NCBI GenBank assembly: GCA_046760505.1
Contig: JBHIEG010000030.1
Coordinates: 1 to 19,086 of the forward strand
Source: CAYFZR01 sp046760505 [NCBI: Candidatus Hydrothermarchaeota archaeon]
GTDB taxonomy: Archaea; CAYFZR01
Reading direction: 5' to 3'
Length of the DNA stretch: 19,086 bases
This document shows positions 1 to 19,086 of this stretch, in pieces. Made by a program: the position numbers and the translations under genes. The stretch's first letter is position 1. The number at the start of each line of letters is the position of its first letter. The notes under the pieces are model-generated. The model saw nothing but the letters and a program-made list of their open reading frames with translations, had not been told where the DNA came from and searched no databases.

Positions 1-8
1 CCTTTGAT

Positions 9-27
9 CCACCTTTATAAAAGGTGG
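9..27 (+). promoter_or_regulatory. TATA box inside a perfect inverted repeat, upstream of rps2
   Basis: The sequence CCACCTTT-ATA-AAAGGTGG is a perfect inverted repeat with 8-bp arms and a 3-nt centre. Its middle (CTTTATAAAAGG) is a good archaeal TATA box. A start site about 26 bp downstream would fall near base 45, giving a leader of roughly 16 nt that just includes the Shine-Dalgarno AAAAGGAG (46-53) before the S2 start codon. The palindrome could be an operator, a hairpin terminator of the gene upstream (in many euryarchaea this is enolase, which is not visible here), or chance. The TATA reading is the better supported one. Confidence 0.5.
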
Positions 28-60
28 AGGGGAGGAAAAAAATAGAAAAGGAGACTGAAT

Positions 61-660: not shown

Positions 661-669
661 GGGTGAAAT

Positions 670-1500: not shown

Positions 1501-1502
1501 TT

Positions 1503-2444
1503 TTGATTGTGGCCTCTGCACCCGCCAAGACTATCCTGTTTGGAGAGCATGCGGTTGTCTACGGCGAGCCTAGCATCGCTTGCGCAATTGATTTAAGAAC
1601 AAAAGCAAAAATATCTAAGAGCGATAAAATCGAGATTAAGTCAAGAGACGTTATTAAAACAGACGTTGATGCAATTTTAGACAGAGAAAATATGAGAAAT
1701 AAGAGCGAGTTGAGATACATCCTTACTGCCATAGACAAAACCTTCGAAAAAATAGGTAAGGAAAAAAATTTTTCCTTGGAAATAGATTCTAACATCCCAG
1801 TGGGTGTTGGATTAGGTTCTTCGGCTTCTGTTGTAGCTTCTACTATATGTGCACTTTCTAATTTTTTAAAAGAACCATTAGAAATAAAAGAAATCTCTGA
1901 ACTTGCATACGAAGTCGAGTTGGAAGTCCAAGGAGCAGCTAGTAGAATAGATACTTCTGTTGTAACATATGGAGGAGGAATTTTGGTGAAGGGCTCGGAT
2001 GTAAGACTAATCGATGTAAATTTACCCTTGGTGATAGGCAACACTGGAATAAAGGGAGATACGGGTAAGTTGGTCTCTATGGTAAGAGAGAGAAGAGAAA
2101 GAAATCCGGAAATAATCGATAGGATTATCGCTTCTATCGGAAATATTACTCTTAAGGCACTGGATGCATTGAAAAACAAGGATCATAATAAGATAGGCGA
2201 ACTCATGGACATAAATCACGGACTGTTAGATTCCTTGGGTGTTGTAACAAGAGAACTCTCAGAGCTCGTACACTTAGCAAGAAGAGAAGGATCCTTGGGA
2301 GCAAAAATGACCGGAGCTGGAGGAGGCGGCTGTATAATCGCATATGCTCCAGGAAAAGAAAATAACGTGGTAAAAGCGATAAGAGAAGCAGGATACTCTT
2401 CTTTTATTTCCTCTATTTCCAAAGAAGGAGTAAGATTAGAGTGA
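1503..2444 (+). CDS. mvk: Mevalonate kinase (GHMP kinase)
   Basis: ATP-dependent phosphorylation of mevalonate to mevalonate 5-phosphate, in the cytoplasm. The 313-residue protein shows all three GHMP kinase motifs: APAKTILFGEHAVVYG at the N-terminus, the ATP-binding loop GLGSSAS at residues 103-109, and KMTGAGGGGC at 268-277. The catalytic Asp is probably Asp150 in AASRIDTSV. I chose the TTG start at 1503 because GAGGAG lies 6 nt upstream (1491-1496) and because family members begin with a short M-I-x-A-S-A-P leader. The stop overlaps the GTG start of the next gene by 4 bp. It is the 5-phosphate-forming kinase, not the mevalonate-3-kinase of Thermoplasma, judging from its overall sequence. 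Confidence 0.95.
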   Translation: MIVASAPAKTILFGEHAVVYGEPSIACAIDLRTKAKISKSDKIEIKSRDVIKTDVDAILDRENMRNKSELRYILTAIDKTFEKIGKEKNFSLEIDSNIPVGVGLGSSASVVASTICALSNFLKEPLEIKEISELAYEVELEVQGAASRIDTSVVTYGGGILVKGSDVRLIDVNLPLVIGNTGIKGDTGKLVSMVRERRERNPEIIDRIIASIGNITLKALDALKNKDHNKIGELMDINHGLLDSLGVVTRELSELVHLARREGSLGAKMTGAGGGGCIIAYAPGKENNVVKAIREAGYSSFISSISKEGVRLE

Positions 2445-3235
2445 TAATTAAAATAGGCGGATCAGTGATATCCGACAAGAATGTGGATTACAGCTTTAGG
2501 GAAGATACCATAAGGAGACTTGCAAGGGAGATAAAAGAAATAGAAGATGATTTGATTCTTGTTCACGGAGGAGGATCATTTGGCCATCCTATTGCCAGAA
2601 AATTCAAAATTAGAGAGAAATTTTCGCGTGAAGGTTTTGCAAAAATCCATTGTGGCATGAGAAAATTGAACTTCATGATATCAAGGTGTTTTATTGAAGA
2701 GGGTGTTCATGTAGTAGGCGTATCTCCCTCATCCCTTGTTATTCTCAAGAAAGGTAAGGTTCATCGAATCTACATTGAAACAATAAGGAATATGATTGAA
2801 TTGGGGATTGTACCACTTTTACACGGCGACGTAGTTTTAGATTCGGAAAAGGGAGCAGATATATTATCTGGTGATCAAATAGTCAGTTTTTTGGCAAAAG
2901 AATTTGGAATGGACGTGATATTCTTGACTGACGTAGATGGTATCTATACAAAAGATCCAAAAAAATACGATGATGCAAAGCTGATAAGAGAATTAGATGG
3001 GAAATTTTTGGACAAAATTAAATTGGAAGAATCTTATTTAAATAGCAAAGATGTAACTGGAGGCATGAAAAAAAAATTAGAGGAAATACAGAAAATTGTC
3101 AAATACTCAAATGTTATTGTTGCAAACGGAATGCGCCAAAATGTTATAAAACTCGTATTGGAGGGGAAGGGACCATATACAACTATTGAGAGGAAAGTTT
3201 ATGGGAAAGAAAGACATGGAAAAAAGAAAACTTGA
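2441..3235 (+). CDS. ipk: Isopentenyl phosphate kinase
   Basis: Phosphorylates isopentenyl phosphate to isopentenyl diphosphate with ATP, the signature step of archaeal mevalonate pathways. It is an amino-acid-kinase-fold protein of 264 residues. IIKIGGSVIS at the N-terminus binds phosphate; VHGGGSFGHP (41-50) carries the conserved catalytic-type His49; HGDVV and LTDVDGIYTKDPKK form the nucleotide and substrate loops. The GTG start at 2441 overlaps the mevalonate kinase stop (GTGA), with AAGGAG at 2425-2430. Its last 35 bases overlap the next gene in another frame, so its lysine-rich C-terminus is encoded over the IPP isomerase start. Its adjacency to mevalonate kinase and the isomerase fits the archaeal route. 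Confidence 0.93.
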   Translation: MIIKIGGSVISDKNVDYSFREDTIRRLAREIKEIEDDLILVHGGGSFGHPIARKFKIREKFSREGFAKIHCGMRKLNFMISRCFIEEGVHVVGVSPSSLVILKKGKVHRIYIETIRNMIELGIVPLLHGDVVLDSEKGADILSGDQIVSFLAKEFGMDVIFLTDVDGIYTKDPKKYDDAKLIRELDGKFLDKIKLEESYLNSKDVTGGMKKKLEEIQKIVKYSNVIVANGMRQNVIKLVLEGKGPYTTIERKVYGKERHGKKKT

Positions 3236-4271
3236 ACACATCAATATCTGCCTCAAAGAGAACGTAGAGAGCAGGAGAACCACAGGATTTGAGGATGTCC
3301 ATTTCGTTCATGAGTGCATTCCAAACATAAACTTCGGAGATATAGACTGTAGTTGCGAATTATTTGGAAAAAAACTATCTGCTCCAATAATCGTAGCCGG
3401 AATGACGGGCGGACATAAAAATACAAAAAAAATTAATAAGAACATAGCAAGAGCCGTGCAGGATCTCGGTCTGGGAATGGGTGTTGGAAGCCAAAGACCC
3501 GGAATGGAAGAAGAGAATTTAATGGACACATATAAGGTGAGAGACGAGGCCCCGGACGTATTGCTTTTTGCAAACTTAGGCGTTTCACAGTTCATGGAAT
3601 ACACCTCCAAAGAAGCAAACAAGGCTGTAGAGGAGATAGAAGCTGATGTGCTTGCGATACACTTCAACCCTTTGCATGAGGTAGTCCAGCCGGAAGGAAA
3701 TGTAGAAACCAAGGGATTGAAGGAAAGGTTGAAAAGAATTATAAAAGAAGTAAGATATCCATGCGTTGCAAAAGAAACTGGAGCGGGGATTTCATATGAA
3801 AATGCCCTCGAACTTGATAGGATGGGTTTTTCCGGAATAGATGTTGGAGGCTTAGGAGGCACTTCATTCTCTGCTGTAGAGACCTATAGAGCTAAAGAAT
3901 CTCCGAGGAAAAAAAGGTTGGGAGAAGTTCTGTGGGACTGGGGCATACCAACAGCAATTTCTACATTTGAGGTGAGGAGAGCACTGCCAGATACCCAGAT
4001 AATATCGACAGGAGGAATAAGAACTGGCTTGGATATTGCAAAAGCCCTAGCATTGGGGGCAAACGCGGCAGGAATAGCATTACCCGTCCTTGAAAGAGCC
4101 ATAAAGGGAGAAAAACAAACTAAGGAATACCTGGAAGAAATAATCCTTCAACTCAAGGCAGTCATGTATTTATTGAATGCCGAGACAATAAAGGACTTAA
4201 AAAGTAAACATATTGTGGTCTGCGGAAAGACACGGGAGTATATAATGGCGAGGGGTTTTGAAATTGGATGA
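3201..4271 (+). CDS. fni: Isopentenyl-diphosphate delta-isomerase, type 2 (FMN-dependent)
   Basis: Interconverts isopentenyl and dimethylallyl diphosphate using reduced FMN and Mg2+. The protein is 356 residues from the ATG at 3201, which has GAGAGGA 6 nt upstream; an in-frame TTG at 3186 has no better site and would lengthen the overlap with ipk. TIM-barrel/FMN features visible are SAPIIVAGMTGGH (60-72), GVGSQRPG, VAKETGAGIS, DVGGLGGTSF and STGGIRTGLDIAKALALGA near the C-terminus. Oddity: the active-site loop reads HFNPLHE (154-160), whereas the type 2 isomerases I know have Asn-x-x-Gln-Glu there. His159 (codon CAT) thus replaces the Gln thought to act in catalysis, while the Mg2+-binding Glu160 is kept. 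The function call is still strong from whole-length similarity and position. Confidence 0.92.
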   Translation: MGKKDMEKRKLEHINICLKENVESRRTTGFEDVHFVHECIPNINFGDIDCSCELFGKKLSAPIIVAGMTGGHKNTKKINKNIARAVQDLGLGMGVGSQRPGMEEENLMDTYKVRDEAPDVLLFANLGVSQFMEYTSKEANKAVEEIEADVLAIHFNPLHEVVQPEGNVETKGLKERLKRIIKEVRYPCVAKETGAGISYENALELDRMGFSGIDVGGLGGTSFSAVETYRAKESPRKKRLGEVLWDWGIPTAISTFEVRRALPDTQIISTGGIRTGLDIAKALALGANAAGIALPVLERAIKGEKQTKEYLEEIILQLKAVMYLLNAETIKDLKSKHIVVCGKTREYIMARGFEIG

Positions 4272-5256
4272 GATTAATGTTCTTAGCATATTGGAAGAAA
4301 AATCAAAGAAGGTAGATCCAGTAATACTTTCTTGCTTTGAGGGGCGAGAAGAACCGACTAATCTTTATAAGGCATCAAGACATCTAATTGAGGCTGGAGG
4401 AAAAAGAATAAGACCATCCCTTACAATTTTGTCTTGCCTTGCGCTTGGAGGAAATGAAGAGGAAGCATTACCTGTTGCAGCTGCTTTTGAACTCATACAT
4501 ACCTTCACCCTTATTCACGATGATATAATGGACGATGATGATTTTAGGAGAGGATTGCCAACAATTCATAAGAAATGGGACGTTCCAATCGCAATACTAT
4601 CAGGAGATACCTTATTCGCACTAGCCTTTGAGTTGATTTCCTCAAGCGGTCTAGATTCACAAATATCGAAGGAGATATTAAATCTCTTAGCAAGAACAGC
4701 AGTAATCATATGTGAAGGCCAAACGATGGATTTAGAATTTGAAAAGAGATGGGACGTCAAAGAGGAAGAGTATCTCGAGATGGTGGAAAAGAAAACGGCT
4801 TCATTGTTAAGCGCATCAGCAATGGCTGGATCAATCGTTGCAAAAGGCACGGAGGAACAGGTAAATCAGGTAGCAAATTACGGTAAATACCTTGGAATAG
4901 CATTCCAGATAAAGGATGATTTGCTTGGTATCGTGGGGGAAAGGTCTGAGCTAGGCAAACCAGTTGGGAGCGACATCAAGAAGGGAAAGAAAAATTTGAT
5001 TATTCTGCACGCATTGGAAAACTCTGAAGGAGAAGATAGGGAATTTTTACTGAATCGACTTGGTAAAGATTTTCCGAACGATGAATTAAATAAAATTATA
5101 AGAATACTTGAAAAGACAAAATCAATAGAGTATGCGGAAAATAAGGCAAAAAATCTAATTAACAGGGCAAAAAAATGCATTAATACACTTCCTAAATCAG
5201 AGCCACAGGAAATATTGCTCAAGCTAGCGGATTTTGTAGTAGAACGAAAGTTTTAA
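4264..5256 (+). CDS. idsA: Geranylgeranyl diphosphate synthase (short-chain polyprenyl synthase)
   Basis: Condenses dimethylallyl diphosphate with isopentenyl diphosphate units, giving the C20 precursor of archaeal lipids. Numbering from the TTG at 4264: first Asp-rich motif DDIMD at 86-90, followed by DDDFRRG; second motif DDLLG at 218-222 after FQIK, the DDxxG form common in archaeal enzymes; GKPVGSDIKKGKKN after it. Phe81, fifth residue before the first Asp motif, is the chain-length position where an aromatic residue limits products to about C20 in the Sulfolobus enzyme. Two TTG starts are possible: 4258 is only 2 nt from GAGGGG, 4264 is 8 nt away, so I prefer 4264 (330 residues). It overlaps fni by 8 bp and ends the isoprenoid run. 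Confidence 0.94.
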   Translation: MDEINVLSILEEKSKKVDPVILSCFEGREEPTNLYKASRHLIEAGGKRIRPSLTILSCLALGGNEEEALPVAAAFELIHTFTLIHDDIMDDDDFRRGLPTIHKKWDVPIAILSGDTLFALAFELISSSGLDSQISKEILNLLARTAVIICEGQTMDLEFEKRWDVKEEEYLEMVEKKTASLLSASAMAGSIVAKGTEEQVNQVANYGKYLGIAFQIKDDLLGIVGERSELGKPVGSDIKKGKKNLIILHALENSEGEDREFLLNRLGKDFPNDELNKIIRILEKTKSIEYAENKAKNLINRAKKCINTLPKSEPQEILLKLADFVVERKF

Positions 5257-5332
5257 GAACTAAATACATTATTGTAGAGAAGACCTATACAATGACTGAT
5301 GAGGGGAAATACCCTAAAGGAGGTAGTTCGTT
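5257..5332 (+). promoter_or_regulatory. Probable internal promoter and leader of the L7Ae gene
   Basis: A 76-bp gap between idsA and the L7Ae gene. TAAATACATT (5262-5271) is a weak TATA candidate that would place a start near 5292, giving a leader of about 41 nt. The leader contains GACTGATGAGGGG, a small hairpin AGGG-GAAATA-CCCT (5302-5315) and then the strong Shine-Dalgarno AAAGGAGGT (5316-5324), 8 nt before the ATG. An out-of-frame ATG at 5292 opens a 36-codon reading frame running to 5402 across the L7Ae start. The start site is inferred, not seen. Confidence 0.4.
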
Positions 5333-5704
5333 ATGGCAAAAGCCGTTTATGTTAGATTTGAAGTTCCGAAAGATATCTATGAAAAAGCTTACGAGGCAGT
5401 AGAATTAGCAAGAACAACTGGAAAGATTAAAAAAGGAGTTAATGAAACAACTAAAGCAGTAGAGAGAAAAGAAGCCGAATTAGTGATCATAGCTGAGGAT
5501 GTTGACCCTCCTGAGATTGTTGCGCATCTGCCAATTCTATGCGAGGAAAAGGAGACACCCTATGTATACGTTCCAAAGAAGTTTGATTTAGGAAGTGCTG
5601 CTGGAATAGATGTTTCTTCTTCAGCAGTAGCGATTGTCAAACCAGGAGATGCAAAAGAATTGATAGAGGAAATAGTAAGTAAAATTGAAGATTTAAAGAC
5701 ATAG
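5333..5704 (+). CDS. rpl7ae: Ribosomal protein L7Ae (eL8)
   Basis: Kink-turn-binding protein. In archaea it is part of the large ribosomal subunit and also a core protein of box C/D and H/ACA guide RNPs and of RNase P. The 123-residue length and the run [30 protein letters not shown] (split across roughly residues 31-60) are diagnostic, as are [18 protein letters not shown] and [16 protein letters not shown]. It has the best Shine-Dalgarno of the window (AAAGGAGGT), as expected for a highly translated gene, and starts the L7Ae-S28e-L24e group. In Sulfolobus L7Ae is reported to bind its own 5' leader; the leader here may do the same, which is only a hypothesis. Confidence 0.97.
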
Positions 5705-5714
5705 GAGGATCTAA

Positions 5715-5924
5715 ATGACTGAAGAATCAACTCCAGCGGAGGTTATAGAAATCAAGGGAAGAACTGGAATGACAGGAGAGGTGATTCAGGTTAGATGTAA
5801 GATACTAGAAGGTAGGGATAAGGGACGAATACTTACAAGAAACGTAATGGGTCCTGTGAGAGTGGGAGACATTCTGGCCTTAATGGAAACCGAGAGAGAG
5901 GCAAAGAAACTATCAGCCCCTTAG
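5715..5924 (+). CDS. rps28e: 30S ribosomal protein S28e (eS28)
   Basis: Small ribosomal protein of 69 residues with an OB fold, found in archaea and eukaryotes and placed near the mRNA exit/E site. Family-typical sequence: [20 protein letters not shown], then [23 protein letters not shown] and [15 protein letters not shown]; the C-terminal half is nearly invariant in the family. The ATG at 5715 follows TAGGAGGA, which overlaps the L7Ae stop region. It lies 10 bp after L7Ae and abuts the L24e gene, so the three are one transcription unit. Confidence 0.96.
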
Positions 5925-5933
5925 GTGATATTT

Positions 5934-6110
5934 TTGCCTGAGAAAAGGAAATGTTCATTCTGTAAAAATGATATGAAACCAGGAACAGGAAAGATGTTTG
6001 TAAAGAATGATGGTACCATATTCTATTTTTGTTCTTCTAAGTGCGAAAAAAACATGTTGAAGTTGAAGAGGATACCAAGAAAGGTAAAATGGACATCTTA
6101 TTCTAGATAG
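5934..6110 (+). CDS. rpl24e: 50S ribosomal protein L24e (eL24)
   Basis: Small zinc-binding large-subunit protein. The motif CSFC ... CSSKC gives four cysteines for one zinc, and the ends [12 protein letters not shown] and [15 protein letters not shown] are family signatures. Start choice: the GTG at 5925 lies directly after the S28e stop and inside its own AGGTGA site, whereas the TTG at 5934 is 5 nt after AGGTGA and gives the expected M-P-E N-terminus. I therefore use 5934 (58 residues). It ends the L7Ae-S28e-L24e group; a 61-bp gap follows before ndk. Confidence 0.94.
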
Positions 6111-6171
6111 AACGGTTCAGATAACAATAAAATTTAGATAATAATGAAAAAAGGTTTGGGAAAGATTGAGT
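6111..6171 (+). promoter_or_regulatory. Gap before ndk, possible weak promoter
   Basis: A 61-bp AT-rich gap. ATAAAATTTA (about 6127-6136) could be a TATA box that would place a start near 6157, leaving about 15 nt before the ATG at 6172. No poly-T terminator is visible, so read-through from the L24e gene is equally likely. Only GGTTTGGG and GGGAAAGA resemble a ribosome-binding site. Confidence 0.25.
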
Positions 6172-6624
6172 ATGGAAAGAACGTTCGTCATGATAAAACC
6201 AGATGGAGTTTCAAGAGGACTAATGGGCGAAATTATAAGACGTATAGAGAGAAGAGGCCTTAAAATTTCTGGAATGAGGATGGTATGGATTGATAGAGAG
6301 CTCGCGGAAAAACTTTACGAAATACATAAGGATAAGCCGTTTTTTGAGTCGATAATTTCTTTTATAACTTCTTCTCCTGTTTTGACCATGGTAGTTGAAG
6401 GAAAGGATGTGGTAAAGGTAGTTAGAGACATGATCGGGTCTACAGACCCAAAAGATGCTTTAACAGGAACTATACGCGGAGATTTTGCAATTGATGTTGG
6501 AAGAAACGTTATACATGCTGCTGATTCTCTAGAGAATGCGGAAAGAGAGATTTCCCTATTTTTTACAGAAGAGGAAATATATAACTACAGAAGAACAGAT
6601 GATGACTGGTTGTATGAGGTGTAG
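6172..6624 (+). CDS. ndk: Nucleoside diphosphate kinase
   Basis: Transfers the gamma phosphate from ATP to nucleoside diphosphates through a phospho-histidine intermediate. The sequence begins [15 protein letters not shown], the hallmark N-terminus, and has the catalytic His in [17 protein letters not shown], where most enzymes have NVIHGSDS; the Gly-Ser to Ala-Ala change is conservative and the His is intact. TGTIRGDFA and a C-terminal W-L-Y-E-V complete the family pattern. I chose the ATG at 6172 (150 residues, the usual length) over an in-frame TTG at 6166. It sits upstream of infB with 2 bp between them. Ndk within the L7Ae-S28e-L24e-infB cluster is a conserved archaeal arrangement. Confidence 0.96.
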
Positions 6625-6626
6625 AT

Positions 6627-8402
6627 TTGAAAATAAGACAGATTATTACTTCTGTTCTTGGTCATGTAGATCATGGAAAAACCACTCTTCTAGACAAAAT
6701 AAGAGGAACTGCGATAGCACAGAAGGAATCCGGAGGAATAACGCAGCATATAGGCGCTACAGAAATACCAATCGAGACAATCAAGGATATATGCAAGGGT
6801 TTAATAGATGAGTCTAAATACAAAATAAGAATTCCTGGTCTTCTTTTCATAGATACACCCGGTCATGAGGCATTTACTACTCTCAGGAAGAGAGGAGGGG
6901 CATTAGCAGATCTTGCTCTCTTGGTTGTAGATATAAACGAGGGGATCCAACCCCAGACCATCGAGTCTCTAAACATTCTTAAACACTACAGAACTCCATT
7001 TGTGGTAGCAGCAAATAAGATAGACATGATATACGGGTGGCAAGCAAAAGAAAACTCGACTTTTCTCGCCTCTTTAAAAAATCAAAGCAGTTTTGTAAGG
7101 GAGAAAATAGACGAGAAACTTTACAGTCTGGTTGGTGAACTATACAAATATGACTTTAGTTCTGAGAGATTTGATCGAGTGAAAGATTTTACAAGGGAAA
7201 TTGCAATCGTTCCGGTAAGCGCTAAATCGGGTGAAGGTATACCTGAACTTCTCATGGTTTTGATTGGACTTGCACAGCAGTATCTAACGGAAAGTCTCAA
7301 AATAGAGGTTTCAGGACCCGGAAAGGGCACAGTAATGGAAGTAAAGGAAGAACATGGGTTAGGAACAACGTTGGATGTAATACTGTATGATGGATCTATA
7401 AAGAGGGGAGATAAGATAGCTATCGGTGGATTAGATGGAGTAGTAGTTACCAAGGTGAAGGCACTCCTAAAACCAAGACCTTTGGATGAAATTAGAGACC
7501 CCAGGTTTAAATTTCAACGATTCAATGAAGTCTATGCTGCTAGCGGAGTTAAGATCGTTGCAAAAGGTCTAGAAAACGTGATCGCTGGTGCCCCTTTGTT
7601 GGTAGTTGAAGAAGATTTGGAATCTGTGAAAGAGAGTATAATTTCTGAAATAGAAGGAATAAGAATTGAAACAGAAAGTCAGGGAGTTGTTTTAAAGGCA
7701 GATACCTTAGGATCCCTTGAAGCCACAATAGGTCAGCTTAGAAAATTAGGCATACCCATAAGAAAGGCAGATGTCGGTGATGTATCGAAAAGAGATGTAA
7801 TAGAAGCCTATTCTGTCAATCTCAATGACCCTTATCTCGGAGTTATAATTGCCTTCAATGTAAGAATATTACATGACGCATTGGAAGAAGCGGAAAGAAC
7901 CGGTGTAAAAATATTTCAGGATAATGTCATATATAGACTCATAGAAGATTACGAAAGGTGGGTAGAAGAATCAAAATTAGAGGAAAGAAGAAAAGAATTT
8001 GAAGCCTTAACACAGCCTGGAAAGATTCAAATTCTTGCAAATCACATATTCAGGGCCAGTAAGCCAGCGATTGTGGGTATAGAAGTGATTTCGGGATCCA
8101 TACGTCCAAAATATAAACTCATGCAATCTAATGGATCCATAGTGGGAGAAATAAGGAGCATTCAAGAAGAGAGAGAGAACATAAGCATAGCGAAAAAGGG
8201 AGATAGGGTTGCCATCGCTATAGAGGGGGCTGTAGTGGGAAGAAACATAAATGAAGGTGATTTTCTTTATGTATTCATACCAAATGGTCATTTATCCAAA
8301 TTCGATAAATTCCTAGACGAATTGAGCAATGATGAGTTAGGTGTACTTCAAGAGATAAAAAGTATAATAGAAAAGAAAAGGAAGGGTGAATCCTATGACT
8401 AA
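6627..8402 (+). CDS. infB: Translation initiation factor aIF5B (IF2-like GTPase)
   Basis: GTPase that promotes subunit joining during initiation. At 591 residues it has the archaeal length, without the long N-terminal extension of bacterial IF2 or eukaryotic eIF5B. G motifs: GHVDHGKTT (12-20), GGITQHIGATEI (36-47), DTPGHEAFTT (76-85), NKID (130-133) and SAKSGEG after residue 190. Then follow the beta-barrel domain II, the alpha/beta/alpha domain III (GVVLKADTLGSLEA), and a C-terminal barrel with helix. No intein interrupts it, although some archaeal copies carry one. TTG start at 6627 with GAGGTG 5 nt upstream. Its stop overlaps S6e by 8 bp. Confidence 0.96.
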   Translation: MKIRQIITSVLGHVDHGKTTLLDKIRGTAIAQKESGGITQHIGATEIPIETIKDICKGLIDESKYKIRIPGLLFIDTPGHEAFTTLRKRGGALADLALLVVDINEGIQPQTIESLNILKHYRTPFVVAANKIDMIYGWQAKENSTFLASLKNQSSFVREKIDEKLYSLVGELYKYDFSSERFDRVKDFTREIAIVPVSAKSGEGIPELLMVLIGLAQQYLTESLKIEVSGPGKGTVMEVKEEHGLGTTLDVILYDGSIKRGDKIAIGGLDGVVVTKVKALLKPRPLDEIRDPRFKFQRFNEVYAASGVKIVAKGLENVIAGAPLLVVEEDLESVKESIISEIEGIRIETESQGVVLKADTLGSLEATIGQLRKLGIPIRKADVGDVSKRDVIEAYSVNLNDPYLGVIIAFNVRILHDALEEAERTGVKIFQDNVIYRLIEDYERWVEESKLEERRKEFEALTQPGKIQILANHIFRASKPAIVGIEVISGSIRPKYKLMQSNGSIVGEIRSIQEERENISIAKKGDRVAIAIEGAVVGRNINEGDFLYVFIPNGHLSKFDKFLDELSNDELGVLQEIKSIIEKKRKGESYD

Positions 8403-8781
8403 GATAATTATATCTGATCCATCGACGCAAAGAAGTTATGAGTACAACATAGAAAAGATTGACGTTTTGCTGGGAACAAAGATAGGGGACACGATAGATG
8501 GATCTATCATTGGACTCAAAGGATACAAACTAAAGATTACTGGCGGGAGCGATAAAGATGGCTTCCCAATGAGGAGAGATATTCCTGGAACCGGTAGAAA
8601 AAGAATCTTAATTAGTAAAGGACCAGGATATAATCCAAAGGAGAAAGGGATTAGGAGAAGAAAAACCGTTAGAGGCAATACTATATCTGATGCAATCGTT
8701 CAAATAAATGCGAAGGTAGTAGAACATGGAAAAAAGCCCTTAGATGAATTGATGGGCGGTGATAAAGATAGCAAAGAGTAA
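8395..8781 (+). CDS. rps6e: 30S ribosomal protein S6e (eS6)
   Basis: Archaeal S6e, 128 residues from the ATG at 8395. The family motifs [44 protein letters not shown] and [24 protein letters not shown] are clear. The GGTGA site at 8385-8389 favours this ATG over an in-frame GTG at 8386 that lies inside the site. It overlaps infB by 8 bp and aIF2 gamma by 23 bp, and the infB-S6e-aIF2 gamma order is characteristic of euryarchaea. The long C-terminal tail of the eukaryotic protein is absent, as expected. Confidence 0.96.
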
Positions 8782-9994
8782 ACAACCTGAAATTAACATC
8801 GGAATGGTAGGACACATAGATCATGGCAAAACTACATTAACAGAGGCTTTATCTGGAATATGGACAGATACACATAGTGAAGAGATAAAAAGGGGCATTA
8901 CAATCCGATTGGGATATGCTGACGCTGAGTTCTATAAGTGTCCCACTTGCGATGAGCCCCAATGCTACACCACTGAAAAGGTATGTCCAATAGATGGATC
9001 CCCAACCGAGTTTCTCAGGATGGTCTCTTTTGTAGATGCACCGGGACACGAGACCCTTATGGCAACCATGTTGTCTGGCGCAGCATTGATGGATGCCGCA
9101 ATACTCGTTATAGCTGCTAACGAACCCTGTCCTCAACCGCAAACAAAAGAACATCTTGTGGCACTGAATATTATAGGAGTAAAAAACATTGTGGTTGTTC
9201 AAAACAAAATTGATTTAGTTACAGAAGAGCAAGCATTAAAAAATTATAAAGAAATCAAGAGTTTTGTATCTCAAAATTTGGGAGAAGACGTTCCGATTAT
9301 TCCTGTGGCTGCCCAGCACAGAGCAAACATAGATGTACTTATAAAGGCCATAGAAGAATACCTTCCTACTCCTAAGAGAGACGAGAAAAAACCATGGAAG
9401 ATGTATATAGCCAGATCTTTTGACGTGAATAAACCCGGTACAAGGCCTGAAGATCTTGTAGGCGGAGTAATAGGAGGTTCTCTTTCACAAGGCAAGGTAG
9501 CAGTTGGAGATGAAATCGAAATAAAACCTGGAGAAAAGAAAAAAAGGGAAAAGGGTTACGAATCCATCTTTACAGATGTAGAGTCCATAATGCATGGCGG
9601 TCGAAAAATCAAGGTAGCACGTCCTGGAGGATTGCTAGGAATTGCAACAGGCTTGGATTCTACCTTAACGAAGGCAGACGGGCTAGCTGGTAAGGTAGCG
9701 GGAAAACCCGATACCCTTCCACCTGTTTTGAGCAAAATTTCTCTCGAGGCGTATCTTCTTGAAAGAGTTGTCGGAACAAAAGAGGAGAGAGAAGTTTTAC
9801 CTATCAAGAAAGGAGAACTTTTGATGCTAAATCTGGGCACTTCGACCACACTAGGAACGGTTACTTCTGTAAAAGATAATTACCTAGAATTACTGCTTAG
9901 ATTACCAATTTGTGGCCAAACAAATGATAGACTAGCGATTAGCAGAAAGATAGGCGAAAGATGGAGATTGATCGGTCATGGGATCTTATGTTAA
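8759..9994 (+). CDS. eif2g: Translation initiation factor aIF2, gamma subunit
   Basis: GTPase core subunit of aIF2, which delivers initiator tRNA. G motifs: GHIDHGKTT (18-26), [11 protein letters not shown] (46-55), DAPGHE (93-98), NKID (149-152). The zinc-knuckle region after switch 1 has Cys61, Cys64, Cys69 and Cys76. Where most archaeal sequences I recall have a second C-x-x-C pair, here the last position is Asp79, so Cys69 may supply the fourth ligand or the knuckle may be degenerate. Domains II and III follow; the C-terminus shows [26 protein letters not shown] at 8759 is the only in-frame start after a stop at 8750; its ribosome-binding site is weak, suggesting translational coupling to S6e (23-bp overlap). 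Confidence 0.96.
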
Positions 9995-10358
9995 GGTGAT
10001 ACTTGATACAAATTTTCTTATGCTCCCTGGAAGACTTGGAATAGATATATTTAAGGAAATTGACAGGGAATTATGTGCGAATCATAAACTTTTTGTATTG
10101 TCCACCACTGAAAAGGAACTGAAGAATTTAGTCGAGAATGCAAAGGGATCTGAGAAAAAGATAGCAAAAATTGGCCTTGAGTTGATAGGGCGTTGCGAAA
10201 TTCTACCCGCAGAAAGAGAACCAGATATCGCTATTTTCGATTTCATAAATGAAAACACAGTTGTGGCAACTACAGACAAGGAATTAAGAAAAAAATTAAG
10301 GAAAAAAGGAGTAAAGACATTATATTTGGCGCAAGGCGCTTACATAAGGATGGACTAG
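9978..10358 (+). CDS. PIN-domain protein, Fcf1/UPF0129-like family
   Basis: A 126-residue single PIN domain of the archaeal family often found between aIF2 gamma and Rpo7, related to the eukaryotic rRNA-processing nuclease Fcf1/Utp24. Candidate metal-binding acids are Asp10 ([13 protein letters not shown]), Glu45 or Glu47 in STTEKEL, and Asp100 ([13 protein letters not shown]). The start lies 17 bp inside aIF2 gamma. Its fixed place in a translation cluster, without an antitoxin gene beside it, argues for an RNA-processing or ribosome-assembly role and not a VapC toxin. That role is inferred from family and context, and no substrate can be read from the sequence. Confidence 0.88.
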
Positions 10359-10373
10359 GCTTGGGGTGTATTG

Positions 10374-10928
10374 ATGTACCGAATTGTTACCATCAAGGAC
10401 ATAGTTGCGGTTCCACCTGAAAGATTTGGAGAAGATCTTGAGAGTGTGATAAAGGATATCCTCAGAGAGACCTACGAGGGTATATTAGATAAGGAACTTG
10501 GAGTAATCATATTAATCTCAAATATTAAAGACATCGGCATCGGAAAAATAGCCCCTGGGGATGGATCAGCCTATCATGAAGTAACATTCGATGCACTGAC
10601 ATTTAAACCGGATATGCAGGAGGTTTTGGAGGGAGAAGTGGTAGAGATAGTTGATTTCGGAGCGTTTGTGAGGTTAGGTCCTTTAGATGGACTTATTCAC
10701 ATCTCTCAAATAATGGAGGATTATATAGTTCACGATTCTAAAGGAGGCGCATTAATCGGAAAGGAAACGCACAAAACATTGAAAGAGGGGGACAAAGTTA
10801 GAGCAAGGGTTGTAGCCGTTAGTTTAAATCCAAGAGAACTGAGGGAAAGCAAGATTGGGTTGACAATGAGGCAAAAAGGACTGGGAAAGATCGAGTGGAT
10901 AAAGGCTGAGAAGGAGGAGAAGAAGTGA
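10374..10928 (+). CDS. rpo7: DNA-directed RNA polymerase subunit Rpo7 (RpoE1)
   Basis: Subunit of the polymerase stalk, equivalent to eukaryotic Rpb7, which binds nascent RNA together with Rpo4. The N-terminal RNP-like domain (MYRIVTIKDIVAVPPERFG) precedes an S1 RNA-binding domain from about residue 80 (GEVVEIVDFGAFVRLGPLDGLIHISQI). The length of 184 residues is normal. ATG at 10374 is 5 nt after GGGGTG; an in-frame TTG at 10371 is too close. The stop overlaps the Spt4 start by 4 bp, an arrangement conserved in archaea. The partner Rpo4 is not in this window. Confidence 0.95.
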   Translation: MYRIVTIKDIVAVPPERFGEDLESVIKDILRETYEGILDKELGVIILISNIKDIGIGKIAPGDGSAYHEVTFDALTFKPDMQEVLEGEVVEIVDFGAFVRLGPLDGLIHISQIMEDYIVHDSKGGALIGKETHKTLKEGDKVRARVVAVSLNPRELRESKIGLTMRQKGLGKIEWIKAEKEEKK

Positions 10929-11116
10929 CTAGGGAAAAAGTATGTCGAGACTGTCATGTAATTCTAAAGAAGGAAAATATATGTCCAGTATGCAAGAAGA
11001 GAAATTTATCCTCTGAATGGGGTGGCATGGCTATTATATTCGATCCAAAGAATTCAAAAATAGCCAAGGCAATGAACGTGGAGTTGGCGGGTAGATATGC
11101 TCTCAGAGTACGGTAA
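10925..11116 (+). CDS. spt4: Transcription elongation factor Spt4 (RpoE2)
   Basis: A 63-residue zinc-ribbon protein that pairs with Spt5 and acts as a polymerase processivity clamp. The zinc ligands are CRDC (7-10) and CPVC near residue 20. SEWGGMAIIFDP is the conserved Spt4 segment that contacts Spt5, followed by SKIAKAMN and a basic end. The GTG start at 10925 overlaps the Rpo7 stop and is preceded by GGAGGA. The following gene starts 20 bp before its stop, so both are translationally linked. Confidence 0.94.
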   Translation: MTREKVCRDCHVILKKENICPVCKKRNLSSEWGGMAIIFDPKNSKIAKAMNVELAGRYALRVR

Positions 11117-11651
11117 GTATACCCTCAGAATGCCTGCTAGTCTGGCAGATCAAAAATGTAAACAACCTTGGGGCACCATATATAAAGGAGAAGGTCTGAA
11201 ACCAGCAAAACAGGTTAAGGAAATCATAAAAAAGAAAAAATACTCAAAAGTAATTGCTGTGGGTGACATAACGGTGAGAAATCTGCTAAAAGTTGGTTTG
11301 ATTCCAGATTTATCCATCGTGGATGGAAAAGCAGAAAGAAATATAACTGAAGCGCCTGACTTCGACGCAATAAACGAGGAATGCATCAATCCAGCGGGAC
11401 ACATAACTAAAGACCTTTGGCTTTCTATAGAACGTGCCCTAAAAAAAGATAAACCTGTGAGACTTTTTGTTGTAGGGGAGGAAGATCTTGCAGTTGTGCC
11501 AGCTGCTTTACTTGCAGAGGATGCATGCATCTGTTATGGACAGCCAAAAGAAGGCTTGGTGCTTGTTGAGGTAACAGAAGAGAAAAAGAGACTTGCGAAA
11601 CATCTTGTAGAAAAAATGGAGGTATTGGAGAATGGAAATTCAGATAATTGA
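11097..11651 (+). CDS. GTP-dependent dephospho-CoA kinase (DUF359 family)
   Basis: Catalyses the last step of archaeal coenzyme A synthesis, using GTP to phosphorylate dephospho-CoA; the activity was shown for the Thermococcus kodakarensis homologue. The 184-residue protein has the family blocks AVGDITVRNLL, PDLSIVDGKAERN, CINPAGHITKDLW, FVVGEEDLAVVPAAL and ICYGQPKEGLVLVEV. ATG at 11097, with GGCGGGT just upstream, lies inside Spt4, and its end overlaps S24e by 20 bp. A CoA enzyme between Spt4 and S24e is a standing feature of many archaeal genomes, so expression probably follows growth along with translation genes. Confidence 0.92.
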   Translation: MLSEYGKYTLRMPASLADQKCKQPWGTIYKGEGLKPAKQVKEIIKKKKYSKVIAVGDITVRNLLKVGLIPDLSIVDGKAERNITEAPDFDAINEECINPAGHITKDLWLSIERALKKDKPVRLFVVGEEDLAVVPAALLAEDACICYGQPKEGLVLVEVTEEKKRLAKHLVEKMEVLENGNSDN

Positions 11652-11931
11652 AGAGAAAGATAATCCTTTGCTCAAGAGAAAAGAAGTAAGATTCAAGATA
11701 ATTCATGAAAAAGGACCGACTCCTAAGAGAGAAGAAGTCTTGAATAAACTATCATCTCTTATAAGGGCGGATAAAGAATTGCTCATCATTGATTCATTAA
11801 ATACTCAGTTTGGAAAACCTGTAACTGAAGGATACGCAAAAGTGTACAATTCTGTTGAGAGAATGAAATTTGTTGAACCAAAACACAAGATAAGGAAGAA
11901 TACCATGGAAAAGGAGGAGAGGGAAGAATGA
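11632..11931 (+). CDS. rps24e: 30S ribosomal protein S24e (eS24)
   Basis: A 99-residue S24e protein. Recognised by [21 protein letters not shown], the [16 protein letters not shown] segment, and [15 protein letters not shown]; the acidic/basic tail is normal. GGAGGT lies about 8 nt before the ATG at 11632. It overlaps the dephospho-CoA kinase at its 5' end and the S27ae start by 4 bp (ATGA) at its 3' end. The pairing with S27ae is conserved across archaea. Confidence 0.95.
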
Positions 11932-16066: not shown

Positions 16067-17716
16067 TTAGAACTCTTCTTCTCCTCCTGTTTCTTCGCTA
16101 GGACCTCCTGGAGGCCCTCCTCCTCCTGTTTCTTTCTTCGAAGCCGCTATTACATCGTCTATCCTTAGGATCATGATGGCTGCTTCGCTAGCAGATTTTA
16201 TTCCCTGTGTTTTTGTTCTCAATGGCTCTAAAACTCCTTCCTTGACCATATCTGTTGGCTTTCCTGTAAATGCATCCAATCCTAGATTCGGACCGCCTTT
16301 CTCATGAGCAGATCTTAACTCTACCAAGGTATCTATGGAATCCAATCCAGCGTTCTCTGCTAGAGTTCTTGGTATTATATCTATAGCATCTGAAAAAGCG
16401 GTTATCGCGAGCTGCTCTCTTCCGCCAACACTTTCTGCGTAGTCTCTCAATCCACGGGCAACTTCTATCTCTGGTGCGCCACCGCCCGGAACAACTTTTT
16501 TGTCCTCTATGGCACTCTCTACAACTCTTATAGCATCGTTTACTCCTCTTTCCACTTCATCTACTACGTGCTCGGTTCCTCCTCTTATGAACAGTGTTAC
16601 CGCCTTTGGATACTTGCACTCGGTTACAAACACCATTTCTTCGCCTGCTATCTTTTTCTCCTCTACGAATCCTGCCTCTCCTAAGTCTTCAGGAGTGAGG
16701 TCATCTAAACTGTTAACTATGCTAGCACCAGTAGCCTTTGCCAGTTTTTCCATGTCAGATTTCTTAACTCTTCTCACTGCAAATATGTTTTCCTTTGCCA
16801 AGAAGTGCTGAGCCATATCGTCGATTCCCTTCTGACAGAATACTACGTTAGCGCCTGATTTCTTGATTTTATCAACCATGTCCTTCAACATCTTCTCTTC
16901 TTCGTCTAAGAATGCTTTTAACTGAGTTGGATCTGTGATTCTTATTTCAGCATCTGTTTCTGTATCTTTTACTTCTATGGCTGCATTTATCAAGGCTATT
17001 TTTGCGTTCTTCACAGTTTTAGGCATTCTTGGATGCACTCTTTCTTTGTCTATTACTATTCCTTCTATGAGCTCTGTATCGCTTATACTTCCTCCTTCTT
17101 TCTTTTCCACCTTTATATCATCCGGATCTATCTCATATTTTCCGTCAACTTCTTCCGCTACGTGCTTAACTGCCTTGACTACCAATTTTGCTAAATGATC
17201 CTTTGCGCTTTCTGCTCCCTTTCCAGTCATAGCCGTCATTGCCACTTTTTTGAGAGTTTCTTCGTCGTCTATGGATATATCGATTGCCATGTTCTCCAGA
17301 ATTTCATTTGCTTTTTCAGCAGCTTGCCTGTAACCCGATGCTATTACTGTGGCATGAATGTTTTGATCTAAGAGTTCTTCTGCTCTCTTTAAAAGCTCTC
17401 CTCCCAAAACTACCGCAGTAGTAGTACCATCTCCTACCTCATCGTCTTGGGTCTTTGCGACTTCCACCATCATCTTTGCAGCAGGATGCTCAACGTCTAT
17501 GTCTTTAAGGATGGTGACTCCATCGTTTGTTATCGTTATGTCTCCCAGAGAATCCACCAGCATCTTGTCCATGCCTCTTGGTCCTAACGTTGTTCTCACT
17601 GCCTCTGCTATTATTCTGGCAGCTAAAATGTTTGTTCTCATAGCATCTCTTCCTATGTATCTAGAGGTCCCTTCTGGAAGTATCAAAACCGGTTTTCCGC
17701 TCAATTGGCCAGTCAC
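16067..17716 (-). CDS. ths: Thermosome subunit (group II chaperonin)
   Basis: ATP-driven double-ring chaperonin that folds cytosolic proteins. The 549-residue protein begins with the typical [16 protein letters not shown] and has [11 protein letters not shown] (43-53), NDGVTIL (64-70) and GDGTTT (95-100) for ATP binding, [15 protein letters not shown] and [13 protein letters not shown] in the C-terminal equatorial domain, and a Gly-rich tail ending GGEEEF instead of the Gly-Met tail of many thermosomes. The GTG start at 17716 has GGAGGTG 5 nt upstream. No second subunit is visible, so the ring may be homo-oligomeric or its partner lies elsewhere. It is divergent from a Phr-like regulator and has an operator-like inverted repeat over its predicted start site, which points to heat-shock control. 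Confidence 0.97.
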
Positions 17717-17749
17717 AATAGCACCTCCGCAATTTTTTTGTTGTACGGT

Positions 17750-17773
17750 TTTAGTAACTTTTTGTTATTTTAT
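17750..17773. promoter_or_regulatory. Candidate Phr-type operator at the thermosome promoter
   Basis: On the plus strand TTTA-N3-AC-N5-GT-N-A is present, with an imperfect inverted core AGTAAC-N5-GTTATT (17753-17769; five of six paired positions complementary). As I remember it, the Phr consensus of Thermococcales is TTTA-N3-AC-N5-GT-N-A-N2-AAAA; the last block here is TTAT, a mismatch. The site lies just downstream of, or on, the predicted thermosome start (about 17773), the place from which Phr blocks polymerase recruitment. The alternative TATA near 17768-17778 would instead be covered by the site. Binding is inferred. Confidence 0.5.
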
Positions 17774-17794
17774 TTATCATTAATATAACCATTA

Positions 17795-17805
17795 GATATA
17801 TAAAT
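17795..17805. promoter_or_regulatory. Shared TATA region of the thermosome and regulator promoters
   Basis: GATATATAAAT reads as a TATA box on both strands. For the minus strand it predicts a thermosome start near 17773 (a leader of about 57 nt); for the plus strand a regulator start near 17826 (about 44 nt of leader). One nearly symmetric element may serve both genes, or the thermosome may use the weaker AATAAAATA-like box at about 17768-17778. Confidence 0.5.
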
Positions 17806-17816
17806 GTTGTGTTTCC

Positions 17817-17836
17817 ATATGTTAATTTGTACATAT
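17817..17836. repeat. Inverted repeat ATATGT-N8-ACATAT over the regulator start site
   Basis: A perfect inverted repeat with 6-bp arms and an 8-nt spacer (TAATTTGT) covering the predicted transcription start of the regulator gene. Position and symmetry suit self-repression, as reported for Phr in Pyrococcus, but the sequence differs from the candidate operator on the thermosome side, so it may bind another protein or be chance. Confidence 0.35.
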
Positions 17837-17869
17837 AGAGAGAAATCTGATAGGCAAAGGGGGTCAACA

Positions 17870-18382
17870 ATGGAGAAGGCAAAAACACTCCTAAACATAC
17901 TGGGAAACCCTACAAGGAGAGAAATACTACATCTACTATCCGATGAACCTTACTTTGTAAGCCAACTGGCAAAAGAGTTAGACATAGGTCAAAAAGCTGT
18001 TATACAGCATCTGGAATTGATGGAAAGCGTAGGTTTGGTATCAAAAACGGAACAACAGATGGAAAGGGGACGCCCTAGAAAATACTATGAAATTGATAGC
18101 AACTTGCAGTTGGAAGTGCTGATAGCACCATACCTATTTGAGACTTATCTCTCTGAGCCAAGTTTTGAAAAAGATGAAATTATAGATGATCCATTTAACA
18201 AACTTAGGAAAGTCAAGGACCCTCTAAAGAGACTGGAGATACTTTCCGAGGTAATTAAGGATACCCTGATGCTTATTCAATACCATGAGGGAACAAAGAG
18301 AAGACTAGAAAGGACGCTGGAAAGATTGAAGGAAGAGATGAGGAAGACAATCGAAACCATAGATCAGAGCATCGAGTTATAG
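17870..18382 (+). CDS. Winged-helix (ArsR-type) regulator, Phr-like heat-shock repressor
   Basis: A 170-residue DNA-binding protein with a helix-turn-helix at residues 27-55 (PYFVSQLAKELDIGQKAVIQ), a wing ERGRPRKYYEI at 65-75, and a long charged helical C-terminus (117-170) suited to dimerisation by coiled coil. The N-terminal half closely resembles my recollection of Phr of Pyrococcus furiosus (LGNETRRRIL, PYFVSEL, GQKAV, PRGRPRKYY), which represses chaperone genes and itself. The start is the ATG at 17870, with AAAGGGGG upstream; an in-frame frame open to 17804 adds 22 residues of unlikely sequence across the promoter. Divergent from the thermosome, it is a natural candidate to control it. 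The ligand or heat-sensing mechanism is unknown. Confidence 0.85.
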   Translation: MEKAKTLLNILGNPTRREILHLLSDEPYFVSQLAKELDIGQKAVIQHLELMESVGLVSKTEQQMERGRPRKYYEIDSNLQLEVLIAPYLFETYLSEPSFEKDEIIDDPFNKLRKVKDPLKRLEILSEVIKDTLMLIQYHEGTKRRLERTLERLKEEMRKTIETIDQSIEL

Positions 18383-18521: not shown

Positions 18522-19086
18522 ATGGCTGAGATATATTCCATAAAGAGACAGTACGAATACAGGGTACGCAGCATAAGAGAAGATGAAAAAATAACTCCCA
18601 GGAACAAAGAACTAATCTTAGAATTTGAAAGAGATTTGTTTTCTGAAGGTTTGACCCTGCAGAGAGTTCTGTTTTATTTAAACAGGTTGCACATGATTGC
18701 TAGATGGATAGAAAAAGATTTGGATAAACTCGACAAAAAAGATGTTAAAAATCTTGTAGCGAGAATAGAGAGATCAGATTACTCAGAATGGACAAAAAAA
18801 GATTACAATGTGACCATTAAGAAATTTTACAAGTGGCTTAACGGCGGAGAGGAGTATCCAGAGCAAGTGAAATGGATAAGGACAACCATGAAGAAGGATA
18901 GGCAAAAACTTCCGGAAGATCTTCTTACCGAGGAGGAAGTTAAAAAATTAATTGAAAGTGCAGAGAACATAAGAGACAAGACCATGATAAGCGTTCTTTA
19001 CGAAGGAGGCCTTAGAATAGGAGAGCTCTTAGATACAAAGATAAAGCATGTTAGCTTTGACCGGCACGGTGCATCAATCTTGGTCC
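18522..19086 (+). CDS. Tyrosine recombinase/integrase (3' end outside window)
   Basis: Only the first 188 codons are in the window; the frame is open to the end. The N-terminal SAM-like core-binding domain covers about residues 24-107 (RSDYSEWTKKDYNVTIKKFYKWL in parts, 84-106). The catalytic domain begins near 134 (LLTEEEVKKLIESAEN), and EGGLRIGELL contains the first catalytic arginine, Arg165. The remaining His-x-x-Arg and Tyr residues would lie beyond 19086. It resembles the long-N-terminal archaeal integrases common in euryarchaeal genomes and is related to XerA. ATG at 18522 is predicted to be leaderless, with no Shine-Dalgarno. Whether it is the chromosomal XerA or belongs to an integrated element cannot be told from this part. 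Confidence 0.87.
   Translation, partial: MAEIYSIKRQYEYRVRSIREDEKITPRNKELILEFERDLFSEGLTLQRVLFYLNRLHMIARWIEKDLDKLDKKDVKNLVARIERSDYSEWTKKDYNVTIKKFYKWLNGGEEYPEQVKWIRTTMKKDRQKLPEDLLTEEEVKKLIESAENIRDKTMISVLYEGGLRIGELLDTKIKHVSFDRHGASILV

What the first reader, a model, noticed from the sequence alone, without database searches (positions are those of the whole stretch)
17716..18382. Thermosome paired divergently with a Phr-like regulator and an operator-like site between them
The regulator's winged helix and wing (GQKAV, RGRPRKYY) look like Phr, the heat-shock repressor known from Thermococcales. In the 153-bp intergenic region AGTAAC-N5-GTTATT, within a match to most of the remembered Phr consensus, lies over the predicted thermosome start. 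A Phr-like protein next to the chaperonin gene in an organism whose gene set does not look like Thermococcales would be a compact local heat-shock switch, and would extend this regulation to the chaperonin itself.
Basis: partly seen in the sequence, partly recalled or inferred. Interest (0 to 1): 0.62.

Follow-up and report, generated by a model that had tools for sequence, protein, structure and literature searches.

The report
Heat-shock repressor beside a chaperonin gene
In an uncultured archaeon, a protein of the known archaeal heat-shock repressor family (Phr/HSR1) is encoded back to back with a protein-folding machine, and the DNA between them carries this family's binding site placed where it could keep the folding machine switched off until heat releases it.

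Summary
Confirmed. Genes, coordinates and inverted repeat are as described. The regulator belongs to the Phr/HSR1 family (best solved match is Phr, 2p4w; GQKAV and RGRPRKYY identical). The repeat is this family's operator: TAAC-N5-GTTA occurs within 150 bp upstream of 81 of 143 distinct Phr-family genes (about 0.6 expected by shuffling). A matrix trained only on regulator promoters ranks the window site first in 19 kb (14.8 bits, next 5.5).

The divergent pair itself was found nowhere else (0 of 80 thermosome loci, 0 of the surveyed regulator loci); G011 has one same-strand cluster of both. The link is nevertheless supported. In 9 of 20 regions from related genomes a Phr-family gene lies divergently next to a heat-shock gene or operon. 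Thermosome promoters of a Hydrothermarchaeota-like group carry the operator (9 of 28 score 10 bits or more; 0 of 30 and 0 of 70 in two comparison sets).

Best reading: a Phr-family repressor sits just downstream of the predicted thermosome start and is released by heat. This is a new variant of a known switch; a published summary says Phr/HSR1 regulons lack thermosome genes. Binding, start sites and heat response are inferred; autoregulation is unresolved.

The parts
16067..17716 (-). thermosome (group II chaperonin) subunit gene, 549 aa, GTG start
   Evidence: NCBIfam thermosome_alpha 867.6 bits and thermosome_beta 865.1 bits, Pfam Cpn60_TCP1; up to 73% identity to other archaeal thermosomes
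17722..17728 (-). ribosome-binding site GGAGGTG of the thermosome
   Evidence: read from sequence
17753..17769 (.). operator AGTAAC-TTTTT-GTTATT (minus strand AATAAC-AAAAA-GTTACT), Phr/HSR1-family type
17797..17804 (-). predicted TATA box TTTATATA of the thermosome, with BRE-like CAACA in front (17805-17809)
   Evidence: best match (10 of 11) to the published BRE/TATA consensus in the 153 bp (consensus from PMC10746257, passage); distance to the dyad as in many other thermosome promoters
17859..17864 (+). ribosome-binding site GGGGGT of the regulator
   Evidence: read from sequence
17870..18382 (+). Phr/HSR1-family winged-helix regulator, 170 aa
   Evidence: NCBIfam Phr_regulator 1.4e-33 (below its exception cut-off), PDB 2p4w 1.4e-28, Pfam HTH_5

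Best explanation
A divergent heat-shock switch. The 170-aa protein is a Phr/HSR1-family repressor. As a dimer it binds the dyad 17753-17769, which covers about +5 to +21 of the predicted thermosome transcript, and at normal temperature keeps RNA polymerase from starting on the TBP/TFB-TATA complex, as reported for Phr on hsp20. When heat inactivates or depletes the repressor, thermosome synthesis rises. Whether the same site also limits the regulator's own transcription is open: it lies 100 bp from the regulator's start codon. Shown by sequence: gene identities, operator identity, and recurrence of operator with chaperonin in other genomes. Predicted: TATA box and start site. Inferred: binding, repression, heat release.
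For: Regulator: Phr_regulator model 1.4e-33 and PDB Phr 2p4w 1.4e-28 with identical GQKAV and RGRPRKYY. Operator: exact TAAC-N5-GTTA in 81 of 143 distinct Phr-family upstreams against about 0.6 by shuffling, the core of the published HSR1 site CTAAC-N5-GTTAG (PMC9133787, passages); the window site is top in 19 kb. Architecture: in 9 of 20 Phr regions from related genomes the next gene on the other side is a heat-shock gene or operon: HSP20-thioredoxin-like-CDC48 in L132, L142, L143, L145; HSP20-like-CDC48 in L133; CDC48 in L139; thioredoxin-like with CDC48 two genes on in L141; GrpE-DnaK-DnaJ in L149, L150; in L138 HSP20 comes second, after one other gene. GrpE-DnaK-DnaJ in L298 and CDC48 in L301 are also divergent. 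Of these 12, 11 have the operator or a one-base variant in the gap or, in L138, before HSP20; L301 has none. Chaperonin: matrix score of 10 or more in front of 9 of 28 Hydrothermarchaeota-like thermosomes, 0 of 30 in a mostly Thermococci-like set and 0 of 70 in others. A Phr-family gene and a thermosome in one cluster behind such an operator in G011. Spacing from TTTATA to the two half-sites: 39/46 nt in the window, 36-39/43-46 in 14 Thermococci-like and 40-41/47-48 in five Hydrothermarchaeota-like promoters, 35/42 in L162.
Against: The divergent pair has no second example: 0 of 80 thermosome loci (70 of 80 have at least 1 kb upstream), 0 of 51 loci around Phr or weaker ArsR-like matches with up to 1.5 kb flanks, 0 of 20 larger regions and 0 of 108 further loci. 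PMC10653856 states that Phr and HSR1 regulons do not include thermosome subunits (passage). The Thermococci-like set has no exact operator at a thermosome (0 of 29). In four operator-bearing thermosome promoters (L158, L174, L175, L176) the dyad stands before an AAAATNTTTT box rather than after a TTTATA, so the position is not uniform. G003 has a site before a thermosome but no clear Phr (best E 6.6e-5). No operator-like dyad is evident at the regulator's own TATA candidates. No expression or binding data.
Confidence: 0.74

Rival explanations
1. The dyad belongs to a chaperonin-promoter element read by some other factor, and the neighbouring Phr-family gene is coincidental or regulates other targets. 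Thermococci-like chaperonin promoters carry a related half-site GTNACTAAAA at the same place although their thermosome is not a reported Phr target.
For: GTNACTAAAA in 14 of 29 thermosome upstreams of a mostly Thermococci-like set (shuffle 0.08), in register and at about the same TATA distance as the window; exact operator in 0 of 29 there; G003 has the site but no clear Phr.
Against: The window site matches regulator-promoter operators far better (14.8 bits) than any site of the Thermococci-like set (at most 7.5), and full operators occur at thermosomes of genomes that have Phr-family genes (G004, G018, G019, G025, and G011 at cluster level).
Confidence: 0.12
2. The site is used only for autoregulation of the regulator; the thermosome merely lies next door and is expressed constitutively.
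For: Phr-family genes commonly carry the operator in front of themselves (81 of 143); a TATA-like GTTATTTTATT (17764-17774, 9 of 11) overlaps the end of the dyad towards the regulator, and in several relatives the operator likewise directly precedes such a box.
Against: The dyad lies 36 bp from the thermosome start codon and 100 bp from the regulator's; the stronger TATA faces the thermosome and its distance to the dyad is one seen in other thermosome promoters; thermosomes elsewhere carry the operator without a Phr neighbour.
Confidence: 0.08
3. The protein is a general ArsR-type sensor (metal, redox) rather than a heat regulator.
For: HTH_5 (ArsR) domain match; score far below the Phr exception cut-off (116 against 320 bits); SurR, a sulfur-metabolism regulator, is a weaker relative.
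Against: The Phr model beats SurR and the metalloregulator models by many orders (1.4e-33 against 9.9e-11 and 2e-13); the operator is that of Phr/HSR1; in relatives the family sits beside heat-shock genes.
Confidence: 0.06

Closest known systems
Phr of Pyrococcus/Thermococcus (NCBIfam NF053602, PDB 2p4w)
   Same: full-length homology (E 1.4e-28), same recognition helix and wing motifs; operator near the start site of a chaperone gene (Phr overlaps the start of hsp20; PMC9133787, passages)
   Different: a published summary puts the thermosome outside the regulon (PMC10653856, passage); the Thermococcal Phr clade does not include the window protein; in 30 of 30 Thermococci-like Phr loci none of the chaperone queries matches within the roughly 1.5-kb flanks
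HSR1 of Archaeoglobus fulgidus
   Same: same family (arCOG01684 for Phr and HSR1, PMC5852551, passages); operator CTAAC-N5-GTTAG (PMC9133787, passages) against AGTAAC-N5-GTTATT here
   Different: HSR1 lies in one operon with hsp20 (cdc48 recalled); here the regulator is divergent to the thermosome
Divergent Phr-family gene with HSP20, CDC48 or GrpE-DnaK-DnaJ in unnamed related genomes (L132, L133, L139, L141-L143, L145, L149, L150, L298, L301; L138 with one gene between)
   Same: regulator back to back with a heat-shock gene; operator or one-base variant in 11 of these 12
   Different: the partner is not the chaperonin
G011 cluster (L291): operator, membrane protein, thermosome, GroEL, Phr-like, INO1-like, IPCT/DIPPS-like, HSP20-like
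   Same: Phr-family gene and thermosome in one cluster behind a TAAC-N5-GTTA site
   Different: one strand instead of divergent; a Phr paralog of another subtype; several heat-shock genes together

Membership tests
Phr/HSR1 heat-shock regulators (arCOG01684 / NF053602) | full-length sequence homology to Phr | tested here: met
   2p4w E 1.4e-28 over residues 3-169; Phr_regulator model 1.4e-33, best of all NCBIfam models
Phr/HSR1 heat-shock regulators (arCOG01684 / NF053602) | NCBIfam exception cut-off of Phr proper (320 bits) | tested here: not met
   116.1 bits; hence a family member, not called Phr itself. Three other relatives beside heat-shock or INO1/IPCT-like genes also stay below (75.0, 99.3, 68.5 bits)
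Phr/HSR1 heat-shock regulators (arCOG01684 / NF053602) | recognition helix and wing motifs GQKA and RGRPRKYY | tested here: met
   identical to 2p4w; R70 and Y72 invariant, A43, H47, L48 in at least 95% of 59 homologs
Phr/HSR1 heat-shock regulators (arCOG01684 / NF053602) | operator TAAC-N5-GTTA at a heat-shock gene promoter | tested here: met
   17753-17769
Phr/HSR1 heat-shock regulators (arCOG01684 / NF053602) | autoregulation | tested here: inconclusive
   the only operator lies in the shared region but 100 bp from the regulator's start codon; no second site near the regulator
Phr/HSR1 heat-shock regulators (arCOG01684 / NF053602) | repression at growth temperature, release by heat | not testable with these tools
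   needs protein and RNA experiments
Thermococcales Phr orthologs | position within the Thermococcal Phr clade | tested here: not met
   tree of 60 proteins: window outside the Thermococcal clade (100/99; that clade holds the G072 protein, 4.3e-103 to 2p4w), weakly with the Phr-2 clade (96/71) and then the DnaK-partner clade (93/90); long branch, placement unsure
Thermosome (group II chaperonin) | match to thermosome models above cut-off | tested here: met
   804.8 bits against a cut-off of 671.1 for TIGR02339; 867.6 against 450 for thermosome_alpha

The most novel reading that the evidence does not exclude
Phr-family repressors are a modular local heat-shock switch whose partner is exchangeable (HSP20, CDC48, GrpE-DnaK-DnaJ, inositol-phosphate osmolyte synthesis, thermosome). 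The dyad just after the TATA box of thermosome genes is an old Phr-family operator: intact and in use in the window's lineage and the Hydrothermarchaeota-like group, worn down to NNAC-N5-GTNACTAAAA in Thermococcales. That would make Phr-family proteins the missing regulators of the archaeal chaperonin.
Probability: 0.38. Interest if true: 0.72.

Novelty: new variant of a known kind. Interest (0 to 1): 0.57.

Why it matters
Thermosomes are heat-induced (log2 fold change 2.7 in P. furiosus; PMC10746257, passages), yet a published summary puts them outside the Phr and HSR1 regulons (PMC10653856, passage), so their regulator is an open question. Here the known repressor family, its operator and the chaperonin gene meet in 153 bp, and the same operator recurs before thermosomes of several genomes. 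That gives a concrete binding site to test, and a half-site in Thermococcales to re-test with Phr.

Tried and rejected
Chance repeat: rejected. A second inverted repeat, ATATGT-N8-ACATAT at 17817-17836 near the regulator, was considered as an autoregulatory site and dropped: any perfect 6-bp inverted repeat with spacer 0-12 occurs in 53% of shuffled regions, and it does not resemble the operator.

The window's organism is not identified. eIF2gamma is 60-69% identical in the Hydrothermarchaeota-like genomes that gave a match (best rows 66-69%), 63-64% in G027/G049 and 61% in G052/G072. The thermosome tree (47 rows, with only about a quarter of the non-Hydrothermarchaeota-like rows used) places it outside that group, near Hadarchaeota, Aenigmatarchaeota and one Archaeoglobi row, on long branches. 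Only 1 of 28 genomes of the Hadarchaeota phylum has a Phr match at 1e-10.

A single-sequence AlphaFold model was too poor to use (mean pLDDT 51.6), so no fold search was made. For the statement that no paper seen describes Phr control of a thermosome I searched, an open-licence library only; passages of five papers were read (PMC10746257, PMC5852551, PMC9133787, PMC10653856, PMC3038420); Keese 2010 and Rohlin 2005 were not held; Vierke 2003 and Kanai 2010 were not read.

Rows dropped: rows with too little upstream and duplicate proteins or upstreams were left out of the counts; eight thermosome rows from Hydrothermarchaeota-like or neighbouring records were removed from the 'other' set. One row (L331) has an artefactual upstream and was called short, so the valid comparison set there is 29. 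One search had one locus (L215) in which the regulator match did not reappear. In one search several regions (L134, L144, L145) begin close to the regulator and could hide a neighbour; L135 has GrpE-DnaK-DnaJ about 2.6 kb away with other genes between and was not counted. Spacing list: matches outside the stated range are L063 (25/32), L328 (20/27) and a second match in L314 (49/56). The group called 'relatives' includes a few Thermococci-like and Halobacteriota rows. One search repeated the genome set and added nothing.

Full report
What is there. The thermosome gene runs 16067-17716 on the minus strand and the regulator 17870-18382 on the plus strand, each with a good ribosome-binding site, with 153 bp between their start codons. 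The thermosome assignment is clear (867.6 bits). The regulator's best NCBIfam model is Phr_regulator at 1.4e-33, far ahead of SurR (9.9e-11) but well under that model's own cut-off of 320 bits, and its best solved relative is Phr (2p4w, 1.4e-28, aligned over residues 3-169), with GQKAV and RGRPRKYY identical. It is therefore a member of the Phr/HSR1 family and is not called Phr itself.

The repeat. AGTAAC-TTTTT-GTTATT at 17753-17769 holds the only TAAC-N5-GTTA in the window. To learn whether this is an operator, I collected Phr-family genes from unnamed archaeal genomes reached through thermosome loci and read their upstream regions. Within 150 bp upstream, exact TAAC-N5-GTTA occurs in 12 of 29 Thermococci-like regulators, 13 of 39 of the relatives set, 50 of 66 Halobacteriota and 6 of 9 mixed ones, 81 of 143 in all, against about 0.6 expected from Markov versions of the same stretches. 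It is also the core of the published HSR1 site CTAAC-N5-GTTAG (PMC9133787, passages). Some copies nearly equal the window's, such as AGTAACCTTTTGTTATT before L116. A matrix trained only on regulator promoters gives the window site 16.8 bits (next best 4.9; 0 of 40 shuffled windows and 1 of 5000 shuffled intergenic regions reach it). A less strict matrix built iteratively from 108 of 138 upstreams gives 14.8 against 5.5.

Is the pair kept? Not as such. None of the 80 thermosome loci has a Phr-family gene in the DNA held (70 of 80 have at least 1 kb upstream). None of 51 loci around Phr or weaker ArsR-like matches has a thermosome within flanks of up to 1.5 kb, nor has any of 20 larger Phr regions, nor any of 108 further loci (68 have CDC48 directly downstream on the same strand; 39, including all 30 Thermococci-like ones, match none of the chaperone queries; 1 gave no regulator match). 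One genome, G011, has a same-strand cluster: TAAC-N5-GTTA, a small membrane protein, thermosome, GroEL, a Phr-like paralog, INO1-like, IPCT/DIPPS-like and HSP20-like genes.

What the neighbours of relatives show. In 9 of 20 regions around Phr-family genes the adjacent divergent gene or operon is a heat-shock one: HSP20-thioredoxin-like-CDC48 in four, HSP20-like-CDC48 in one, CDC48 in one, a thioredoxin-like gene with CDC48 two genes on in one, GrpE-DnaK-DnaJ in two; in a tenth, L138, HSP20 is second after one other gene (families of ten representative proteins checked). L298 (GrpE-DnaK-DnaJ) and L301 (CDC48) are also divergent, and L299 has Phr, a small CxxC protein (by eye) and GrpE-DnaK-DnaJ on one strand behind an operator. 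Of the 12 divergent cases 11 carry the operator, exact in 5 and with one changed base in 6; L301 has none. The window thus repeats a recurrent layout with a new partner.

The operator at thermosomes. In the Hydrothermarchaeota-like group (22 genomes) exact TAAC-N5-GTTA lies within 200 bp upstream of 5 of 28 thermosome genes (0.11 expected) against 1 of 70 in other archaea (0.2 expected) and 0 of 29 in the Thermococci-like set. Allowing TWAC-N5-GTWA the numbers are 11 of 28 (0.43 expected), 1 of 70 (0.76) and 2 of 29 (0.40). With the matrix, 9 of 28 score 10 bits or more, against 0 of 70 and 0 of 30. These rows are related, so the counts are not independent events. Against a tidy picture, G003 carries a site but no clear Phr gene.

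Position. The best BRE/TATA in the 153 bp faces the thermosome: CAACA-TTTATATA, 17809-17797. Counting from TTTATA, the AC of the left half-site lies 39 nt and the right half-site 46 nt downstream. The values are 40-41 and 47-48 in five Hydrothermarchaeota-like promoters, 35 and 42 in L162, and 36-39 and 43-46 in 14 Thermococci-like chaperonin promoters. In four other operator-bearing thermosome promoters (L158, L174, L175, L176) the dyad instead stands before an AAAATNTTTT box, as it does before several regulators, so two arrangements exist. By the usual TATA-to-start distance (recalled) the window's start is near 17774 and the dyad spans about +5 to +21. Published Phr binding overlaps the start site of hsp20 and blocks polymerase recruitment (PMC9133787, passages).

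Thermococci-like chaperonins. They lack the full operator (0 of 29), in line with the statement that Phr and HSR1 regulons omit the thermosome (PMC10653856, passage), but 14 of 29 carry GTNACTAAAA in the same place, with AC in register seven bases before it; 5 of 28 Hydrothermarchaeota-like and 0 of 70 other upstreams carry it. The window has GTTACTAAAA there too. This may be a degenerate form of the same operator, or an element of another factor. I rate the first likelier for the window because of its full operator, but keep the second as the main rival.

Mechanism. Most likely a dimer of the regulator sits on the early transcribed region of the thermosome, prevents initiation, and is released on heating. 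Autoregulation is a reported trait of Phr and HSR1 (PMC9133787, passages) but is unresolved here, since the only operator is 100 bp from the regulator's start codon.

Placement and novelty. The regulator falls outside the Thermococcal Phr clade and joins, weakly and on a long branch, the clade of the Phr-2 paralogs (which includes that of the G011 thermosome cluster) and then that of the DnaK partners. Phr-family control outside Thermococcales is known (HSR1; AMET1_0853 with heat-induced CDC48, PMC5852551, passages). New are the divergent pairing with the chaperonin and the operator in front of thermosomes. I found no description of either in the searches, which cover an open-licence library only. 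I class it as a new variant of a known kind.

Noticed in passing
L291 (G011:C3) 3-7900: One apparent minus-strand cluster holds a group II thermosome, a group I GroEL, a Phr-like paralog, INO1-like, IPCT/DIPPS-like and HSP20-like genes behind a single TAAC-N5-GTTA site.
   Followed up: partly
L292 2296-5705, L293 5690-9108, L296 5874: A second Phr-like subtype sits with a small membrane protein and genes like those for the thermoprotectant di-myo-inositol phosphate (inositol-phosphate synthase-like, IPCT/DIPPS-like, below the models' cut-offs) downstream of a Phr-type operator; gene calls in L296 are uncertain.
   Followed up: partly
L149, L150, L298, L299: Phr-family genes beside GrpE-DnaK-DnaJ operons, divergent in three genomes (L149, L150, L298) and same-strand in one (L299); the divergent gaps carry at least two one-base variants of the operator each.
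   Followed up: partly
L306-L321 (upstream of thermosome): Chaperonin promoters of Thermococci-like genomes share NNAC-N5-GTNACTAAAA about 36-39 nt after TTTATA, in the same register as the window's operator (14 of 29 upstreams).
   Followed up: partly
L153-L157, L164 (upstream of thermosome): Another thermosome paralog of the Hydrothermarchaeota-like group has a variant dyad TWAC-N5-GTAAC, 40-41 nt after TTTATA in L153-L157.
   Followed up: partly
window 18522-19085: A tyrosine recombinase of the archaeal XerA type starts right after the regulator and runs off the window.
   Followed up: no
window 61-11931: Conserved archaeal block S2, MEMO-like, mevalonate-pathway and GGPP synthase genes, L7Ae, NDK, IF-2, S6e, eIF2gamma (roles recalled from the sequences, not run against a family library).
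   Followed up: no
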